Assembly: GCA_034003725.1 (NCBI GenBank)
Contig: JAVEYB010000001.1
Coordinates: 1 to 64,000, forward strand
DNA: 64,000 bases
Source of the DNA: Candidatus Zixiibacteriota bacterium
Lineage (GTDB): Bacteria; Zixibacteria; MSB-5A5; GN15; FEB-12
Reading direction: 5' to 3'
A program made the position numbers and the translations under genes. The notes beneath the pieces were generated by a model, which did no database searches, was not told the DNA's origin, and was given only the letters and a program-made list of their open reading frames with translations. Every line of letters starts with the position of its first letter. Position 1 is the stretch's first letter. This document shows positions 7,181 through 18,407 of the stretch, piece by piece.

Positions 7181-7879
7181 ATGAAGCCTGTGATTGTTAT
7201 ACAAAACTGCGAAATAGAATCTCCCGGCACGATCGGTTTGTACTTGCAGGATCGCCGGATCCCGTTCGCCGTGGTTCGTTCGTTTGCCGGCGAGCGGTTG
7301 CCCGCACCTGAGGATTTCAGCGTCCTGATTGTTCTCGGGACGCCGAAATCGGTCACCGAGTACCGCCAACACCCGTATCTCGTGGAACTCTTTACACTTA
7401 TGACGCAGACGATCCGCCGAGGGCAGCCTATCTTGGGAATTTGCTTCGGCGCGCAGCTTCTCGCCCACACGCTCGGCGCCCGGGTGGAACCGAACAGGGT
7501 CAAAGAGATCGGGGCCATGACGGTCACACTCACCGACGAAGGCGCATCGGATCCGCTTTTTGCCGGATTCGACCGGGAGTTCCCGGTCTTCCAATGGCAT
7601 GGCGACACTTTCCGGATACCATTCGGCGCGACCCATCTGGCGAAGACCGACGATTGTAAGAATCAGGCTTTCCGGAAAGGCAACCTGGTTGGCCTGCAGT
7701 TCCACCTCGAAGCCGACCCCGATGAGGTCCCGCAATGGTGTGATGCGTACGCCGGTGAACTAACCGAAGCAGGCAAGACCAAAGACGGAATAATCGACGG
7801 CTGCCGAGCCTCCGCCGACCATACCCGCGCCCTCGGCTTCAGACTCCTCGACAACTTCTTCAACCTGATCTCCAAATAA
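7181..7879 (+). CDS. Class I glutamine amidotransferase-like protein
   Basis: 232 residues from the ATG at 7181, which has GAGGAAG just upstream. The glutaminase fold has its nucleophile Cys88 in GICFGAQ and the His-x-Glu pair in LQFHLEAD, so the catalytic triad looks intact. It stands alone with no synthetase domain, like the 'GMP synthase-like' amidotransferases of unknown substrate. Proximity to polyamine genes recalls the gamma-glutamyl hydrolase PuuD, but similarity to that enzyme is not evident and a terminator lies between. Substrate unknown. Confidence 0.85.
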   Translation: MKPVIVIQNCEIESPGTIGLYLQDRRIPFAVVRSFAGERLPAPEDFSVLIVLGTPKSVTEYRQHPYLVELFTLMTQTIRRGQPILGICFGAQLLAHTLGARVEPNRVKEIGAMTVTLTDEGASDPLFAGFDREFPVFQWHGDTFRIPFGATHLAKTDDCKNQAFRKGNLVGLQFHLEADPDEVPQWCDAYAGELTEAGKTKDGIIDGCRASADHTRALGFRLLDNFFNLISK

Positions 7880-10745: not shown

Positions 10746-13418
10746 ATGAGCAATACGAACGACGACAGCAGAAAGTCCGCCGCGTACAACCCGTTTGAAG
10801 TGGAATCACGGTTGTACGATCACTGGGTGGCATCCGGTTATTTTCACGGCCGGGCGGATTCCGACAAGAAATCCTACTCGGTGGTCATTCCGCCGCCCAA
10901 CGTAACGGCAGTGCTGCATCTGGGTCATGCGCTGAACAACACCATTCAGGACATACTCGTACGCAAACACCGCATGCAGGGTTTCGAAGCGGAATGGCTG
11001 CCGGGATCGGACCACGCCGGAATCGCCACACAGGTTATCGTCGAAAAGCAACTGGTGAAAGAAGGCACCACGCGGCGAGAGATCGGCCGGGAGAAGTTTG
11101 TCGAACGGACCTGGAAATGGGCGATCGAAAACAAGGACCAGATCCTCAACCAGCTCAAACGAATCGGCTGCTCGTGTGACTGGGAACGGACGCGCTTCAC
11201 GCTCGACGAGGGTTTGTCGCGGGCGGTCGCTGAGGTGTTCGTGCATCTGTACGAAAAGGGCTGGATATACCGGGGCCACCGGATCGTCAACTGGTGCCCG
11301 TCGTGTAAGACCTCGCTGTCCGACGACGAGGTCGAGCACCAGGAGTTCGACAGCCATCTCTGGTACATTAAATACAAGATCAAAGGCTCCGACGAGTATT
11401 TGACGGTGGCGACTACGCGGCCGGAAACCATGCTCGGCGATACCGCGCTGGCCGTCAATCCCAAGGACAGTCGGTACAAAAAGCATATCGGCAAAACGGT
11501 CATCCTTCCTATTCTGGAACGGGAAATCCCGATCGTTGCGGACAGCTATGTCGATCCGGAATTCGGCACGGGCATCGTGAAGGTGACGCCCGCGCACGAT
11601 CCGAACGATTTCGAAATCGGCAAGCGGCACGACCTGGCCGAAGTGAACATCCTGAATATCGACGGCACCCTCAACGAGAATGCGGGCAAGTTCAAAGGGA
11701 TGGACCGGTACGACGGCCGCAAGGCGCTCGTCGAGGAACTGAAAAAGAAGTCCCAACTCGCAAAGACCGAAGATTATCGACTGTCCGCAGGGACCTGCTA
11801 TCGCTGCCACACGATCGTTGAACCGTACCTGTCGGACCAGTGGTTCGTCAAGATGAGCGAACTGGCGCAGCCTGCGGTCGAAGCGGTCAAGTCGGGCAAG
11901 CTCCGGTTCCATCCCGAGTACTGGACCAAGACCTACCTGCACTGGATGGAGAATATCCGTGACTGGTGTATCTCTCGACAGCTCTGGTGGGGCCATCGTA
12001 TCCCGGTGTGGTACGCCGAGGACGGCACCATGTTTGTCTCGGTCGACCGCCCAACCGCGGCCCAGTGCCCCGGCTATGACCCGGCAAGGCTGGTTCAGGA
12101 CGAGGACGTGCTCGACACCTGGTTCTCCTCGTGGCTGTGGCCTTTCTCTACATTCGGCTGGCCGGAAAAAACGAAAGACCTCGAGAAGTTTTATCCGACC
12201 AAAGTGCTGGTGACCGCCTCGGAGATCATCTTCCTCTGGGTGGCGCGAATGGTGATGGCCGGCTACGAGTTTATGGGCGACTGCCCGTTCACCGACGTGT
12301 ATATCCACGGCACCGTGCGCGACGCCAACGGCGTGAAGATGTCCAAGTCGCTCGGCAACGGGATCGACCCGCTGGAGATAACCGACAAGTACGGCGCCGA
12401 TGCGCTCCGGATATCGATGGTGCTGGCCACACCCGACGGCCAGGATCCGTGCGTGAGCCGCAATACGTTCGAGGTCGGCCGGAATTTCGTAAACAAGCTG
12501 TACCAGGTTTCACGCTTTGTGATGATGCGTCTTGACGGAGCGCCGCCGACGCTGGACAAGCTCGGCGATATCGACCTGGTCATTTTCGATCGCTGGATCC
12601 TCTCCCGCCTCGAGCGCACCAAGGAACAGGTGGAGCGCGCCTTCAGCGAGTACCGGTTGAACAACGCCGCGAAAGTGCTGTACAACTTCGTCTGGGAAGA
12701 CTACTGCTCGTGGTATATCGAACTGATCAAACCCGATCAGCCCAACCAGTCCATTCGTGCGGACTCGCTGACAGTCGCGACCTACGTGCTGGGCGAAATC
12801 CTGAAGCTGCTGCACCCGTACGTGCCGTTTGTCACCGAAGAGATCGGTCGGCTGCTGCGCGGGGAGCAGTCCAACGGCGCCCCTACCCTCACGTTCGGGC
12901 CGTGGCCCACGATCGACGAGCGCCGCAAGGACGAGCGACTCGAAGAATCGCTTCGACAGATACAGGAAGTGGTAACGGCCGTGCGATCGATCCGGTCGGA
13001 GTTGAATGTCCCGCCGGGCAAGAAGTCCGACCTGTACATCCGGGTCGACAGCGAGTCGTTCGGCGCGCTGCTGAAAAACCATTACGAGTACTTCCGGTCG
13101 CTGGCGCGGGTCGAAACGCTGCACTGCGGGGTCGACGTCAAAAAGCCCCCGATATCGGCGTCCGCGGTTATCTCCGGCGCGGAGATATTCGTGCCGCTCG
13201 CGGGTCTGATCGATATCGAAGTCGAAAAGAAGCGGTTGCAGAAGAGTCTCGACGAACTGACCGGCCAGCTTGACAAGGTATCGCGCAAACTGGCCAACGC
13301 CGACTTCCTCGCCAACGCGCCGTCGGATGTCATCGAACGCGAGCGAGCCAAAAAAGCCGACTACCAGGAACGCATTGAGCGGCTCAACCGCAACCTCGAA
13401 CAGATCCTCGACTGGTAG
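10746..13418 (+). CDS. valS: Valyl-tRNA synthetase
   Basis: Class I synthetase charging tRNA-Val. 890 residues, full length. The nucleotide-binding HLGH follows PPPNVTAVL near residue 55. The CP1 editing domain includes TTRPETMLGDTA, the synthesis signature is KMSKSLGN near 530, and the anticodon-binding helix bundle is followed by a C-terminal coiled coil (IDIEVEKKRLQKSLDELT) that stabilises the tRNA complex. Monocistronic, with its own strong promoter. A palindromic repeat follows the stop. Confidence 0.98.
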   Translation: MSNTNDDSRKSAAYNPFEVESRLYDHWVASGYFHGRADSDKKSYSVVIPPPNVTAVLHLGHALNNTIQDILVRKHRMQGFEAEWLPGSDHAGIATQVIVEKQLVKEGTTRREIGREKFVERTWKWAIENKDQILNQLKRIGCSCDWERTRFTLDEGLSRAVAEVFVHLYEKGWIYRGHRIVNWCPSCKTSLSDDEVEHQEFDSHLWYIKYKIKGSDEYLTVATTRPETMLGDTALAVNPKDSRYKKHIGKTVILPILEREIPIVADSYVDPEFGTGIVKVTPAHDPNDFEIGKRHDLAEVNILNIDGTLNENAGKFKGMDRYDGRKALVEELKKKSQLAKTEDYRLSAGTCYRCHTIVEPYLSDQWFVKMSELAQPAVEAVKSGKLRFHPEYWTKTYLHWMENIRDWCISRQLWWGHRIPVWYAEDGTMFVSVDRPTAAQCPGYDPARLVQDEDVLDTWFSSWLWPFSTFGWPEKTKDLEKFYPTKVLVTASEIIFLWVARMVMAGYEFMGDCPFTDVYIHGTVRDANGVKMSKSLGNGIDPLEITDKYGADALRISMVLATPDGQDPCVSRNTFEVGRNFVNKLYQVSRFVMMRLDGAPPTLDKLGDIDLVIFDRWILSRLERTKEQVERAFSEYRLNNAAKVLYNFVWEDYCSWYIELIKPDQPNQSIRADSLTVATYVLGEILKLLHPYVPFVTEEIGRLLRGEQSNGAPTLTFGPWPTIDERRKDERLEESLRQIQEVVTAVRSIRSELNVPPGKKSDLYIRVDSESFGALLKNHYEYFRSLARVETLHCGVDVKKPPISASAVISGAEIFVPLAGLIDIEVEKKRLQKSLDELTGQLDKVSRKLANADFLANAPSDVIERERAKKADYQERIERLNRNLEQILDW

Positions 13419-13431
13419 CGCAACGAATCTG

Positions 13432-13459
13432 TGCGTGGTGTACGTTCTCGTGCACCACG
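13432..13459. repeat. REP-like palindromic repeat, third copy
   Basis: Hairpin CGTGGTGTACG...CGTGCACCACG 14 bases after the valS stop, same orientation and same position relative to a stop codon as the copies behind the amidotransferase gene. Confidence 0.75.
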
Positions 13460-13959
13460 ATACCCCGCTCATGTTGCGTCAGGTGCTAGTCCGCCGGAGG
13501 CGGGCGACACGTGACGCGGACCGGACACGCCAATGGCGTGTCCGCAATTGGTACCGCACCGCTTGCGGTGGACCGTGTCACCGCTTACCTGACGAAGGAT
13601 GAAAGGAAACCCACCCAAAGGGTGGGCCACCCCGCCCGTCCGTGCACAAAGCCGTGCGAACAACTTTTTCGTTGTACAAGTGTGGCGCCCTGCACGTTAC
13701 GGGCAAATGGGTTCGTTTTGTCATTTTTATGGGGACCCCATTCTTTTCTTTTCCCCCGATCATGATATCCGGCAGGGGAATAACCGGTATTTGGGCAGGT
13801 TTTTGACAATCGGTCGCGATGCAGAGGTACCATTGTTTTTGCGCTCCGTGTGAGTCGGGTCTTTACTAAGGGGGCCGGGCATTTTTTCCATCGAAGTGGT
13901 AGGGAAAGTGTGGGGTTGCGTGGTGCACGGGGACGGGCGCCATGCACGGTGGGAAGTCG
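13460..13959. other. Hairpin-rich non-coding stretch, left flank of the island
   Basis: No supported gene. It contains several perfect inverted repeats. 13523-13543 is GGACACGCC-AAT-GGCGTGTCC. 13605-13632 holds CCCACCC-AAA-GGGTGGG, repeated at 15124-15150. 13919-13935 is an inverted copy of the REP-like half (CGTGGTGCACGGGGACG). The rest shows no recognisable element. Confidence 0.6.
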
Positions 13960-14896
13960 GCGGGTTCGAAGACGGACGGACCCGCCCTACGGGAGCTTTC
14001 GCGGGGAACCGACAGCCCGCCTGTTTACACCTCAAGTCAATCCCACCCGGGACGGGTGGGCTACTCAGGGTAGCGAGTGCGGTCAGGCGGGGTCGCCTGA
14101 CCGCACTTATATAGGCTTTTTCAACAAGCCCGGGGCGCCAGCCCACCGAGGCCGACCGGTGCGCCCGTGGCGTGCGGGGCTCGGCCGTTCTCTGGCGGGT
14201 TCGAAGGCGGACTGGCCCTGCGGGAGCTGTTTATACCTCAAGTCAATCCCACCCGGGACGGGTGGGCTACTCGGTGCAGTGAGTGCGGACAGGCGGGGTC
14301 GCCTGACCGCACTTGTATAGGCTTTTTCGACATGCCTGGGACGCCAGCCCACCGAGGCCGACCGGTGCGCCCGTGGCGTGCGGGGGTCGGCCGCTCTCTG
14401 GCGGGTTCGAAGACGGACCCGCCCTGCGGGAGCTTTCGCGGGGAACCGACAGCCTGCCTGTTTACACCTCAAGTCAATCCCACCCGGGACGGGTGGGCTA
14501 CTCAGGGCAGTGAGTGCGGTCAGGCGGGGTCGCCTGACCGCACTGATATAGGCTTTTTCGACATGCCCGGGGCGCCAGCCCACCGAGGCCGACCGATGCG
14601 CCCGTGGCGTGCGGGGCTCGGCCGATCTCTGGCGGGTTCGAAGACGGACTGGCCCTGCGGGAGCTTTCGCGGGGAACCGACAGCCTGCCTGTTTACACCT
14701 CAAGTCAATCCCACCCGGGACGGGTGGGCTACTCGGTGTAGCGTGTGCGGTCAGGCGGGGTCGCCTGGCCGCACTGATATAGGCATTTTCAACAAGCTCG
14801 GGGCGCCAGCCCGCCGAGGCCGACCGGTGCGCCCGTGGCGTGCGGGGGTCGGCCGCTCGCTGGCGGGTTCGAAGACGGACCCGCCCTGCGGGAGCT
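13960..14896. repeat. Tandem array of about 231-bp GC-rich units (four units)
   Basis: The marker GCGGGTTCGA recurs at 13960, 14195, 14401, 14632 and 14863. Spacings are 235, 206, 231 and 231. The 206-bp unit lacks 25 bases after CGGGAGCT. Each unit carries CCCACCCG-GGA-CGGGTGGG and a 12 bp stem (TGCGGTCAGGCG/CGCCTGACCGCA) around GGGT. Copies are nearly identical, so amplification is recent or homogenised. Because 231 is a multiple of three, both strands stay open over long stretches, giving repetitive false proteins. Related partial units lie at 17577-17812. Confidence 0.9.
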
Positions 14897-14897
14897 C

Positions 14898-15047
14898 AGC
14901 GAAGCCCTGATCGGCGAACCGATCGCATTTGACCCAATTCACGATGGTCTCTACCAGGTCCACTTTGGACCACTCAAGATCGCCGTCTACGACGAAAGAA
15001 CACGAAAACTGACAAAACCCATGATCGCATCGAGGAATCGGCGTTGA
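14898..15047 (+). pseudogene. 3' remnant of an IS481-like transposase/integrase
   Basis: Forty-nine codons ending in TGA at 15045-15047. The translation contains GEPIAFDPIHDGLYQVHFGP and LKIAVYDERTRK. This resembles the C-terminal tail of IS481-type DDE integrases ('GExVGLExxxDGxWxVxFGPxxLGxxDER'). The catalytic core is absent: the frame runs directly out of the 231-bp array. Behind the stop come the terminal repeats of the element, which supports the identification. Family assignment is from memory of the motif, not a search. Confidence 0.7.
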
Positions 15048-15107
15048 TCACAAACCACAAAAGTGTTACCCATGTAGTGAGTCTATTCTGTTACCCATGT
15101 CGAGAAA
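15042..15107 (+). mobile_element. Right end of the IS481-like element, copy A
   Basis: 66 bases beginning with the last transposase codon and stop (CGTTGA), then two 25-bp-spaced TGTTACCCATGT repeats (15064 and 15089). An almost identical end with three such repeats lies at 17473-17563 in the same orientation. Confidence 0.75.
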
Positions 15108-15123
15108 TGCACAAACAGAAGAA

Positions 15124-15150
15124 GAAACCCACCCAAAGGGTGGGCCACCC
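15124..15150. repeat. Second copy of the CCCACCC/GGGTGGG hairpin repeat
   Basis: The 27-base segment starting GAAACCCACCCAAAG is identical to part of 13605-13632 and forms a 7 bp stem with a 3-base loop. The rest of 15048-15262 shows no gene. Confidence 0.75.
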
Positions 15151-15262
15151 AGCCGCATGGCCGCCGTCCTTTTTCTTCTTCATTCTACACTAGTTCTTTC
15201 ATAGATTGGGACAGCCGCTCGATCACCATCGAGTTGGTGGGGAAAATGAAAGGGAGACTCTG

Positions 15263-15724
15263 TTGGTAACACCCGAACCAGAACCCTCGCGCTTCCGCCG
15301 TCTTCTCAAGCGAGCGGGCCCGATGTTGGCCTGTGCGCTGCTGATGCTCCTGGCACAGTGCAGATGCCCCGTAGACGAGTTCTATGAGATCGATCTCGTC
15401 AACAATGCTGATCACAACATCGGCTATTATTTCGCCGATGGCGGCAAGTACGGCACGTATTACCCCGACTCGCTTCCGCAAACCAGTGAATATGTCGTGT
15501 ACGATATAAGTAAGGTCACCAGCCCGGGGCTCGGTAGTAGCGTGCCGTGGGACGAGTTCTTCGACGGCCTGCCGCGCGACACGCTCTCGCTGTTCATCTT
15601 CCACACCGACACGCTTAACGAGTACACGTGGGAGGAAGTGAGAGACGGTTATATGATCCTTCGCCGTTATGATCTCAGCGAGGCCGATGTCAAGCGGATG
15701 AACTATAGGATAGTGTATCCATGA
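15263..15724 (+). CDS. Putative lipoprotein, first gene of an unrecognised cassette
   Basis: 153 residues from a TTG at 15263, which has AAAGGGAG six bases upstream. An earlier in-frame TTG at 15206 has no ribosome binding site. The N-terminus is basic (RFRRLLKR), then hydrophobic (MLACALLMLLAQC), with LAQC as a plausible lipobox. The remainder is acidic and tyrosine-rich (NIGYYFADGGKYGTYY), suggesting a small extracytoplasmic domain. No family recognised. Gene two follows 22 bases later, so they are probably co-transcribed. The cassette lies between two copies of an IS end. Confidence 0.65.
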   Translation: MVTPEPEPSRFRRLLKRAGPMLACALLMLLAQCRCPVDEFYEIDLVNNADHNIGYYFADGGKYGTYYPDSLPQTSEYVVYDISKVTSPGLGSSVPWDEFFDGLPRDTLSLFIFHTDTLNEYTWEEVRDGYMILRRYDLSEADVKRMNYRIVYP

Positions 15725-15746
15725 GAGATCAACGGACGGAGCATTG

Positions 15747-16265
15747 ATGTACTCGATCGATAAACATGACCGGGTCGAGGAACTTACCTACGTTCCGCAA
15801 TCGTCTGTTGGCGCGCCGGAGCCGGTCGTGCTGGCTTCTGAGCATTCGCTGCTCCTGGCGTACTCTCTCGAACACGAGTCCGATGTGAAGGCCGCCGACA
15901 ATGTTTTGCTTCTCGAGTCGCACGCGGAGGGACCGCCCGTTGCGTTGGTGACGTTCGTTCGGCCTTCCGCGCACCTGTTTGGCCCGCCCAACGATGAAGC
16001 GTTTGCGGGGCATCCCTTAAGCGAGCGGGGACTGGAGCGCTATGGTGTGTTCGAGGTCCACCGATCTTCGTGGATCAGGCAGCTGGAGCGGATGAACGCC
16101 GTGCATCCCAAACACGACAAGAAGTGGTTTATGGAAGGGAAGCGGCATTTCATATTTACGTTTCACGACTCGACGTTTGAGTGCATCGCGCGGGGGATGG
16201 AGATCGCGGTCGGCCGCGGCTGGGTGATGTCGGTGATCCGTGAGGGGTTGGAGAGATTGCGGTAG
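15747..16265 (+). CDS. Hypothetical cytosolic protein, second gene of the cassette
   Basis: 172 residues from the ATG at 15747, GGAG five bases upstream. No signal peptide or membrane segment. A histidine/aromatic-rich C-terminal half (YGVFEVHRSSWI, MNAVHPKHDKKW, HFIFTFHDSTFECIARG) looks like a conserved core, and the paired histidines, Asp, Glu and Cys there could be a metal or catalytic site. I cannot name the family. Context (lipoprotein before, small membrane protein after, IS ends outside) suggests an accessory function. Confidence 0.7.
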   Translation: MYSIDKHDRVEELTYVPQSSVGAPEPVVLASEHSLLLAYSLEHESDVKAADNVLLLESHAEGPPVALVTFVRPSAHLFGPPNDEAFAGHPLSERGLERYGVFEVHRSSWIRQLERMNAVHPKHDKKWFMEGKRHFIFTFHDSTFECIARGMEIAVGRGWVMSVIREGLERLR

Positions 16266-16308
16266 GGCTATGCAGCGGGATGGGCCACCATAGGATACAC
16301 GAGAGAGC

Positions 16309-16734
16309 ATGAGATTTCTGATCGATTTCTTTGACTACATCTTCTTCCGCTCCTTGCTCTTCTTCGAGAAGAGTGGCTTTGCGATGCCTCCCGTAGACAA
16401 CGCGGCATCGTGGGTGGGAATTATCCAGCTCGGGATTGTGTTTAACCTCGCCCTCCTGCCGAAGGGACTTGAGTTGGTGGAGCGGTCGAACGACGCAGTC
16501 AGGCTTCTATTTATCTCTCCGATGTATAACTTCGTGCGTTATCATTTGAAGTCGATTTCGCAAGACGACTTCGCAGTATTCCGCGATAGGTGGTCTTCGG
16601 AGTCACCGACCACTCGAAAGATTCGCGGCTGGCTCATAGCGACCGCGCCGATTTCCCTCGTGCTCCTGGCGTACGTGATAACGCTGATTTTCTTCGAGCC
16701 AAGGTTCTGGCCAAATACGGGAGGCTATGGATGA
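16309..16734 (+). CDS. Small integral membrane protein, third gene of the cassette
   Basis: 141 residues with hydrophobic segments at about 35-52 (WVGIIQLGIVFNLALL) and 108-127 (IATAPISLVLLAYVITLIFF), and an amphipathic aromatic N-terminus (FLIDFFDYIFFRSLLFFEK). Two membrane passes with a basic/polar middle loop are likely. No family recognised. It starts 43 bases after gene two on the same strand, consistent with one operon. Confidence 0.65.
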   Translation: MRFLIDFFDYIFFRSLLFFEKSGFAMPPVDNAASWVGIIQLGIVFNLALLPKGLELVERSNDAVRLLFISPMYNFVRYHLKSISQDDFAVFRDRWSSESPTTRKIRGWLIATAPISLVLLAYVITLIFFEPRFWPNTGGYG

Positions 16735-16822
16735 GTGCTGATCCGAAGTCGTGGGTAGGTCGCCCATAGCTGCTATGGGTTCTCTCGATCACGCGTTTCA
16801 GCAACGTGGCCCGCCCAGTCGA

Positions 16823-17377
16823 TCAATACATCATCACTGTCGCCACCAGCGACACGGCCGTGTGGGTGGCGTTGGCAGCGTCCCAGGAAATATGCCCCAG
16901 GAGAAACCGCGCGCCAATCTGCACGTGCTTGATCGGCTCGACTCCACTGCCGATCGTCACATACGGACCGATACCATTCTCTCCGCCGGATTCGTAGACA
17001 CCGCGCAGCACCCCCGCTGCGATATTGGAGTACCAGGGCAGACGGGTGTCGAAGTAGTGGTACCAGGACGGTCCGAAGTAACCCCGAAAAGTAGCGTCTC
17101 CCTCGCTCTCAAAGTCGAAGTTCCATTCGAACAGGAGGATGTCACCGTCCGACCAGCCGGCCCCGATGCCGAAACCAAACCCCCAGCCGTAGGCTGTCTC
17201 GTTACCGAAGGGACTGTAGGGTGAGTCCGGCCAATCGGCGGCCGGAAGAAACGATGCGCTGAATTGAGCTGCCATTCCGCGACGACTGCCGGGTGGGTTT
17301 TCGGCCTGTGCGGTGGACAGCGGGACTGCGAATAGGAGCAGCGTGAGGCAGACTGAAGTTCTCAGAAATGCTCGCAT
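16823..17377 (-). CDS. Outer-membrane beta-barrel-like protein, unknown function
   Basis: 184 residues from the ATG at 17377, which follows GGGGAGG at good spacing. A longer frame upstream lacks such a site. Signal peptide MRAFLRTSVCLTLLLFAVPL...AQA, then Gly/aromatic alternating strands (YGWGFGFGIGAGW, GYFGPSWYHYF) typical of a small barrel. Faces the three-gene cassette (convergent), also inside the IS-end-flanked segment. Cargo of the same insertion or an older resident gene cannot be decided. Confidence 0.7.
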   Translation of the reverse strand: MRAFLRTSVCLTLLLFAVPLSTAQAENPPGSRRGMAAQFSASFLPAADWPDSPYSPFGNETAYGWGFGFGIGAGWSDGDILLFEWNFDFESEGDATFRGYFGPSWYHYFDTRLPWYSNIAAGVLRGVYESGGENGIGPYVTIGSGVEPIKHVQIGARFLLGHISWDAANATHTAVSLVATVMMY

Positions 17378-17472
17378 TGAAATCCTCCCCGTGAGTGAGT
17401 AGTGCATCCGGAGCAACTATATACTATGCCAAGATAGCGCTATCCCGAGCCCACCGCAAGGGGTGGGGTACC

Positions 17473-17563
17473 CGTTGATCACAAACCACAAAAGTGTTAC
17501 CCATGTAGTGAGTCCATTCTGTTACCCATGTAGTGAGTCCATTCTGTTACCCATGTCGAGAAA
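17473..17563 (+). mobile_element. Right end of the IS481-like element, copy B
   Basis: 91 bases nearly identical to copy A but with one extra 25-bp unit, so TGTTACCCATGT occurs at 17495, 17520 and 17545. It also starts with the terminal CGTTGA of the transposase, but no coding sequence precedes it here. The element body is therefore missing. Confidence 0.75.
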
Positions 17564-17576
17564 CACACAGAGCTTG

Positions 17577-17812
17577 AGTGAATCCCACCCGGGACGGGTG
17601 GGCTACTCAGGGTAGCGAGTGCGGTCAGGCGGGGTCGCCTGACCGCACTGATATACGCTATTTCAACAAGCCCGGGACGCCAGCCCGCCGAGGCCGACCG
17701 GTGCGCCCGTGGCGTGCGGGGGTGGGCCGCTCGGGGTAGTGAGTGCAGTCAGGCGGGGTCGCCTGGCCGCACTTATATAAGCTTATTCAACAAGCCGGGA
17801 CGGGTGGGCGAG
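17577..17812. repeat. Two partial units of the 231-bp repeat family
   Basis: Matches the array from AATCCCACCCGGGACGGGTG through the 12 bp stem and the ACGCCAGCCCGCCGAGG block to about 17735. A second, internally deleted unit runs to about 17812. They abut IS end B just as the main array abuts the transposase remnant. Together with 17378-17472 (no gene seen) this fills the gap before the next gene. Confidence 0.8.
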
Positions 17813-17840
17813 ACTTTTCGGATGTAATGGGAAAACAAGG

Positions 17841-18305
17841 CTACGACTGGGGGGCGCGTTCGGCGAGAGAGCCGAGCAGCTCGCCGACCGTGCGGGCGCC
17901 GGCCGTGTCGGGAAATGACGCCATCTCCATCGGGATGACTTTCTCGAAGCCGTTGCCGGAAAGAGCAGCCAGTTCCTTGAGGATGATATCGGAAATGCGA
18001 CGGGCGGTCAGTTCGGCGTCCTGACGAGACGTCTCCGGAAAGAGGATCGCCACCACCCGGTCGTCGATGAAAGCGAAATTGTCGCTGGCGCGGACATTTT
18101 TCTGGATAGTGTGACGGATCTGCTCGAAGGCCGGGCCTGCGTTGCCGTTGAAATGGGCGCGCGCGAATGAAAAATCAAGTGAAACCAGCGAGACAAACGT
18201 ACGATACCGTTCTGCACGAATAATCTCGATTCCGGCCTGATTCAGGAACGTCCTGACGGGCAGGTAGTTTTCTACGGCGAAGGGGCTGGGCATGGGGTCG
18301 ACCAT
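17841..18305 (-). CDS. Degenerate GGDEF-like (nucleotide-cyclase-fold) domain protein
   Basis: 154 residues. The pattern RTFLNQAGIEIIRAERYRTF...LVSLDF...IRHTIQKNVRASDNFAFID then VVAILFPETS and DAELTARRI follows the layout of a GGDEF domain. The GGDEF loop itself is replaced, so diguanylate cyclase activity is unlikely. The start is the ATG at 18305, six bases after AAGGA. It lies 220 bases downstream of the NtrC-type regulator on the same strand, with DnaA-box-like sites between. It may be a regulatory or binding domain; the assignment is from fold pattern only. Confidence 0.6.
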   Translation of the reverse strand: MVDPMPSPFAVENYLPVRTFLNQAGIEIIRAERYRTFVSLVSLDFSFARAHFNGNAGPAFEQIRHTIQKNVRASDNFAFIDDRVVAILFPETSRQDAELTARRISDIILKELAALSGNGFEKVIPMEMASFPDTAGARTVGELLGSLAERAPQS

Positions 18306-18407
18306 CAACTATCCTTGTACGACTATTCTAACCGAAGCAAGCAATTTTCGTTCCAAGCTTTGCCGAGCGGTGTCGTAAGAATTTTTGCGACAACAACATA
18401 ACAGCAT

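What the first reader, a model, noticed from the sequence alone, without database searches (positions are those of the whole stretch)
15042..17563. 2.4-kb gene cassette bounded by direct copies of an IS481-like end
The same 66-base sequence (last transposase codon, stop, TGTTACCCATGT repeats) stands on both sides in the same orientation, once with an extra 25-bp unit. Only the left copy keeps transposase coding sequence. Between them lie three unknown genes and one outer-membrane gene. This looks like cargo captured between repeated element ends, or two decayed insertions that enclose it.
Basis: partly seen in the sequence, partly recalled or inferred. Interest (0 to 1): 0.58.

Follow-up and report, generated by a model that had tools for sequence, protein, structure and literature searches.

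The report
Relic IS481 ends in REP island
A small block of acquired genes, some resembling proteins that protect bacteria from rivals' toxins, sits in a repeat-rich spot between two housekeeping genes; the matching repeats beside it are broken ends of an old insertion element, not the edges of a working cassette.

Summary
In detail: a right end of an IS481-like element stands in direct orientation on both sides (15042-15113; 17473-17569 with one extra 25-bp unit). Only the left copy keeps transposase codons; four genes lie between.

The reading changes. Both copies are right ends, no left end was found, and similar relics lie on contigs C7 and C3 and in one congener. All five are followed within about 20 bp by a REP palindrome (67 pattern matches in this genome, reversed pattern 0), with RAYT transposases in the genus. 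They are relics in a REP island, not cassette edges.

The valS-GGDEF gap is about 0.1 kb in congener G002 and holds a RAYT plus REPs in G001. G001 carries remnants of this block, in order, beside recA, with NTF2-fold and SUKH immunity-family genes between. Gene 2's model is nearest, weakly, to an immunity protein; gene 3's paralogue sits in a toxin-tip array.

Best reading: an acquired, possibly orphan-immunity block that changed islands, probably by recombination between repeats. Known ingredients, moderate interest.

The parts
13419..17840 (.). REP island between valS and the GGDEF-like gene
   Evidence: gap about 0.1 kb in G002, 1.4 kb with RAYT and REPs in G001; 9 REP palindromes here by the broad pattern and none elsewhere in the 64-kb window
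13641..13960 (+). dispersed intergenic repeat of about 300 bp
   Evidence: 80-87% identical copies in REP-rich loci of the same genome
14035..14895 (+). copies of a 231-bp repeat, each with a REP; part of a further copy at 17577-17770
14895..15047 (+). C-terminal fragment of an IS481-like transposase
   Evidence: 47% over 49 residues to the G040 transposase
15042..15113 (+). relic right end of the element, left copy
15128..15150 (+). REP palindrome after the left relic
15323..15724 (+). gene 1, lipoprotein-like, unknown family (a longer start at 15263 is possible)
   Evidence: no relative in 131 other genomes of the phylum
15747..16265 (+). gene 2, scattered conserved family; model nearest to immunity protein PIM7 (weak)
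16309..16734 (+). gene 3, membrane protein; paralogue in the toxin-tip array at C7
16759..16779 (-). REP palindrome, inverted
16823..17377 (-). gene 4, exported outer-membrane-like protein
   Evidence: its 3' end is a remnant in G001
17450..17473 (+). REP palindrome that touches the right relic
17473..17569 (+). relic right end, right copy, with an extra 25-bp unit
17584..17608 (+). REP palindrome after the right relic

Best explanation
The valS-GGDEF gap is a REP island: RAYT-type palindromes, other dispersed repeats and fragments of an IS481-like element piled up at one junction. Shown: the two flanking repeats are relic right ends of that element, next to REPs, and the gap is nearly empty in one congener. 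Shown: remnants of the same block, in the same order, stand in another congener beside recA, with other genes between them, two of them of immunity-protein families. Inferred: a block of accessory genes, at least partly orphan immunity genes against toxins of rival bacteria, was acquired horizontally. Also inferred: it changed places by recombination between the dispersed direct repeats, not by IS481 transposition. The immunity role taken alone is about 0.4 likely.
For: Relics of the same right end at C7 and C3 of this genome and in G001, all five compared copies followed by a REP within about 20 bp. REP pattern 67 / 108 / 17 times in G000 / G001 / G002, reversed pattern 0. RAYT at the orthologous site in G001 and homologues in G000 L167 and G001 L179. 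Nearly empty site in G002. Collinear block remnants beside recA in G001 at 91% over 64 bp and 83% over 118 bp, against 76-85% for core genes, with Imm-NTF2-2 (E 9e-21) and SUKH-1 (E 9e-9) between. Genes 1-3 found in at most 2 of 132 genomes of the phylum, own included; gene 2 has 25 related loci scattered over other phyla. Gene 2 model: best matches 8owu immunity chain Z 5.9 and 5v77 Z 5.6, next 3.1. Gene 3 paralogue lies in a toxin-tip array.
Against: No movement was observed; the remnants could also come from one old block lost at one place and kept at another. Foldseek finds no match at E 0.001 for gene 2, and Z under 8 may be only a common arrangement. Gene 3 itself has no family hit; only its paralogue has a weak one (E 0.0015 against a cut-off of 100 bits). 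Neighbours of gene 2 relatives in other phyla were not toxins in the 10 proteins scanned. REP-adjacent genes in general are not immunity genes.
Confidence: 0.55

Rival explanations
1. Two independent decayed IS insertions: the element landed twice next to REPs, on either side of genes that were already there; the genes have no link to the repeats.
For: IS insertion at or near REPs is known for other families (PMC1525189). The downstream flanks of the two copies differ.
Against: The left copy and the C7 copy share 132 bp at 95%, REP and flank included, which looks like copying of one unit. The block is absent in G002 and its remnants lie beside an IS end in G001 too.
Confidence: 0.22
2. Composite-transposon or one-ended IS481 event: the element captured the four genes and moved them as cargo between its ends.
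For: Direct copies of an IS end on both sides.
Against: Both are right ends in direct orientation, no left end was found in the genome with 2 mismatches, and no transposase gene lies at the site.
Confidence: 0.06
3. RAYT-driven cassettes: the RAYT transposase moves segments bounded by REPs, gene cargo included.
For: IS tail + REP is repeated in tandem in G001; the right relic and the C3 relic lie directly between REPs; genes at C7 and in G001 L178 are separated by REPs.
Against: In the passages read, RAYTs are tied to REPs and REP pairs, not to gene cargo. The left relic's nearest upstream REP is 310 bp away. Plain recombination between repeats explains the same data.
Confidence: 0.1

Closest known systems
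IS481-family insertion sequences
   Same: Transposase C-terminus related to an integrase-like transposase whose gene in relatives is flanked by the same kind of ends
   Different: Here only right-end relics; no gene, no left end
GTAG-tagged REPs with RAYT (REPtrons, PMC3733652, passages)
   Same: Short palindromes in many copies, GTAG or a near variant at one end when read on the other strand, RAYT genes in the genus
   Different: Tags vary (GTAG, GTGG, GTAC by my reading), and the REPs lie among gene cargo
IS elements that target REPs (PMC1525189, passages; ISPpu9, PMC8450116, passages)
   Same: IS ends next to REPs
   Different: Families named are IS3, IS110, IS4, IS256 and IS5; the term IS481 does not occur in that paper
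rAID orphan-immunity arrays of Bacteroidales (PMC12247911, passages)
   Same: Short accessory genes, partly of immunity families in the sister array (SUKH, NTF2), repeated motifs between genes
   Different: No tyrosine recombinase seen, short block, one gene reversed, immunity not shown

Membership tests
IS481-family element | integrase-like (DDE) transposase gene | tested here: not met
   only the last 50 or so codons remain at 14895-15047; full genes only in relatives
IS481-family element | inverted ends on both sides | tested here: not met
   5 places with 2 mismatches in the genome, read as right ends; draft of 35 contigs, so a hidden copy is possible
IS481-family element | target duplication | not testable with these tools
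   no intact copy here
REP (GTAG type) | palindrome in many copies per genome | tested here: met
   67 in G000, 108 in G001, reversed pattern 0
REP (GTAG type) | GTAG-like tag at one end | tested here: met
   the searched pattern was built with this tail; GTAG and variants in the list (my reading); definition
REP (GTAG type) | RAYT gene flanked by REPs | tested here: met
   G001 L090 7874-8419 (NF047646, E 2e-28) between REPs at 7822 and 8452; homologues in G000 L167 and G001 L179
rAID array | tyrosine recombinase next to the array | tested here: not met
   no such ORF between valS and the GGDEF-like gene; the definition is
rAID array | co-oriented short genes | tested here: inconclusive
   genes 1-3 yes, gene 4 reversed
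rAID array | genes code for immunity proteins | tested here: inconclusive
   weak fold match for gene 2; families over cut-off only in the G001 array
PIM7-like immunity proteins (8owu) | shared fold and neutralisation of a toxin | tested here: inconclusive
   Z 5.9, rmsd 4.8, 95 residues, 7% identity; neutralisation not testable here
composite transposon | two IS copies whose outer ends bound the cargo | tested here: not met
   two right ends in direct orientation

The most novel reading that the evidence does not exclude
REPs and their RAYT transposase act as punctuation and vehicle of orphan-immunity gene arrays in this lineage, in the place that a tyrosine recombinase and intergenic motifs hold in rAID arrays, so that REP islands at fixed core junctions trade immunity cassettes between loci and species.
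Probability: 0.1. Interest if true: 0.7.

Novelty: new member of a known kind. Interest (0 to 1): 0.38.

Why it matters
It shows how repeat islands at fixed chromosomal junctions collect, swap and fragment accessory genes in a group outside the usual models. If the immunity reading holds, it adds a lineage that stockpiles defence genes against rival bacteria and offers gene 2 as a new immunity family. The negative half is useful too: matched IS ends around a gene block need not mean that the IS moved it.

Tried and rejected
Composite IS481 transposon: set aside for two direct right ends and no left end. Intact element in this genome: the pattern with 2 mismatches found 5 places; the integrase family PF00665 found 3 genes, and no such end was seen in the stretches fetched around them. 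The genome is a draft of 35 contigs and the C7 copy lies about 0.2 kb from a contig end, so a hidden copy is possible.

REP islands as immunity islands in general: not supported. Of 61 REP-adjacent genes scanned, the 25 families shown (of 49) hold one immunity family, Imm-NTF2-2, beside superoxide dismutase, PilZ and others. That set came from a home-made gene caller, which missed two small genes in L097; I added these two by hand and left out genes over 330 aa. The 128 non-adjacent genes were listed but not scanned, so there is no control.

Gene 1 structure: single-sequence model with pLDDT 46, not used. Relatives of genes 1 and 3: none in plasmids or viral contigs. Gene 2 in plasmids: 3 Paraburkholderia records. 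Gene 2 profile against solved structures by sequence: nothing better than E 0.7. Alignment A1 of gene 2 holds the window protein and 19 of the 25 loci (six left out); one row (L137) is out of frame; the model was made with it as it stands. Partner genes upstream of gene 2 relatives: no shared family.

Papers: no hit for PIM7. The 8 listed of 27 papers show no paper with both orphan immunity and REP sequences. Rfam: no match at 13400-18400. The repeat at 13641-13960 shows little covariation.

Full report
Observation. The repeat is real and far beyond chance. The left copy is 15042-15113 with transposase codons 14895-15047 before it; the right copy is 17473-17569 with a third 25-bp unit and no codons before the last. 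Between them are three short genes on the plus strand and one exported, outer-membrane-like gene on the minus strand.

What the repeats are. The remaining codons match the C-terminus of a 391-aa transposase in relative G040 at 47% over 49 residues. Beside that gene stand ends with the same paired TGTTACC units, inverted at the other side where the contig allows. In this genome the pattern occurs at the two window places, at C7 and at C3, with weaker ones at C14. The copies are cut at different points on the left. Those without transposase codons are called right ends by sequence alone. Of 61 genomes searched (own included), 14 match the end region.

REPs. Each of five compared copies (two in the window, C7, C3, G001 C3) is followed by a palindrome of the CCCACC...GGTGGG type within about 3 to 20 bp. 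On the other side a clean REP lies within 6 bp in two of the five (right window copy, C3); C7 has an imperfect one and G001 a half, and the left window copy has its nearest 310 bp away. The pattern is found 67 times in G000, 108 in G001 and 17 in G002, the reversed pattern 0 times. On the other strand the palindromes carry GTAG or near variants, the mark of RAYT-linked REPs (PMC3733652, passages). A RAYT gene stands at this very junction in G001, with homologues in G000 L167 and G001 L179. In G001 the outer IS tail + REP is repeated in tandem, so tail and REP spread together there.

The site in relatives. Of 12 fetched relatives, 9 have valS and the GGDEF-like gene under 1.6 kb apart, 2 (G009, G020) have over 4 kb that I did not read, and in one (G022) valS was not in the stretch. 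The gap is about 0.1 kb in G002, 1.4 kb with REPs and RAYT in G001, 0.13-0.6 kb in six others and 1.5 kb with another gene in G031. The window's 4.4 kb is thus an addition. Sequence just after valS is shared with G001 (82% over 85 bp), so the island probably began before those two species split.

The block elsewhere. Beside recA, G001 has 64 bp of the start of gene 2 (91%), 118 bp at the end of gene 4 (83%), the IS end and REPs, collinear and in one orientation. Core genes of the pair are 76-85% identical, so the fragments are about as old as the species split or a little younger. Between the fragments lie three other genes: Imm-NTF2-2 (E 9e-21), an unknown, and SUKH-1 (E 9e-9). That SUKH gene is the only one found in the three genomes of the genus. 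In G000 the PilZ-recA gap carries a subtilase and two Fib_succ_major genes among the same kinds of repeats. Two core junctions are therefore islands in both species, with different cargo.

The genes. Genes 1-3 have matches in at most 2 of 132 genomes of the phylum, the own genome included; for gene 3 the second is a weak hit (E 6e-4), for gene 2 it is the G001 fragment. Gene 2 has 25 related loci in other phyla, with conserved HPL and FHDSTFEC residues. Its model is good (pLDDT 88.8). The two chains that stand out are immunity protein PIM7 of a polymorphic toxin and an uncharacterised Neisseria protein (Z 5.9 and 5.6, next 3.1), while Foldseek finds nothing at E 0.001. Gene 3 is 37% identical over its length to a gene at C7, and that paralogue has a weak Bfi1-immunity hit. 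The C7 stretch (L024) has toxin tips followed by small genes of one family, with hairpins and REPs between them. One tip matches four plasmid records at 41-47%, two of them annotated as RHS proteins. The IS end lies in the same stretch. Genes 1 and 3 are low in GC (0.54 and 0.52 against 0.588, sd 0.024, for 51 window genes); genes 2 and 4 are not.

Mechanism. Shown: relic ends, REP island, near-empty site, remnants at another locus with immunity-family genes. Inferred: horizontal entry, movement between islands, immunity. Direct repeats on both sides, of 60 to about 160 bp, would let ordinary homologous recombination excise the block as a circle and reinsert it at another copy; this needs no transposase and I hold it the likeliest route. 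RAYT action on REP-bounded segments is the bolder alternative.

Comparison. IS next to REP is known for five IS families (PMC1525189, passages) and for ISPpu9 (PMC8450116, passages). Orphan-immunity arrays with intergenic motifs are known as rAID (PMC12247911, passages); this block fails the recombinase test. No listing seen joins REPs with orphan immunity genes; this is a statement about those searches only.

Verdict. A real feature with known ingredients. Interest is moderate.

Noticed in passing
window 13641-13960; also L164, L030, L032 (two), L031, L161, L163, L166: A dispersed intergenic repeat of about 240-300 bp, 80-87% identical over nine aligned copies in REP-rich loci of this genome; no Rfam match and little covariation. 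Nature unknown.
   Followed up: partly
L024 (G000 C7:186000-194484): Array of short toxin tips, each followed by a small gene of one family, with a terminator-like hairpin and a REP between units; looks like a polymorphic-toxin tip and immunity array cut by the contig end.
   Followed up: partly
L031 2335-9115 (G000 C11, PilZ-recA gap): REP island with a subtilase gene and two near-identical Fib_succ_major genes, each preceded by REPs with a TGTTACCCATGT motif between them.
   Followed up: partly
L178 4336-7031 (G001 C5): DUF1801, DinB and RDD genes, one between each pair of REP groups: a REP-punctuated row of ordinary accessory genes.
   Followed up: partly
window 15201-15291: The stretch upstream of gene 1 recurs at G001 C1:678787-678877 (79%) and G000 C4:222920-223011 (77%), near similar 182-aa genes of unknown family.
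   Followed up: no
L026 954-990 and 1140-1176 (G000 C14): Two more relic ends of a related element with a different tail, in a duplicated stretch.
   Followed up: no
gene-2 relatives L115-L139: A conserved small protein family with invariant HPL and FHDSTFEC residues, scattered over many phyla, no Pfam match for the window member.
   Followed up: partly
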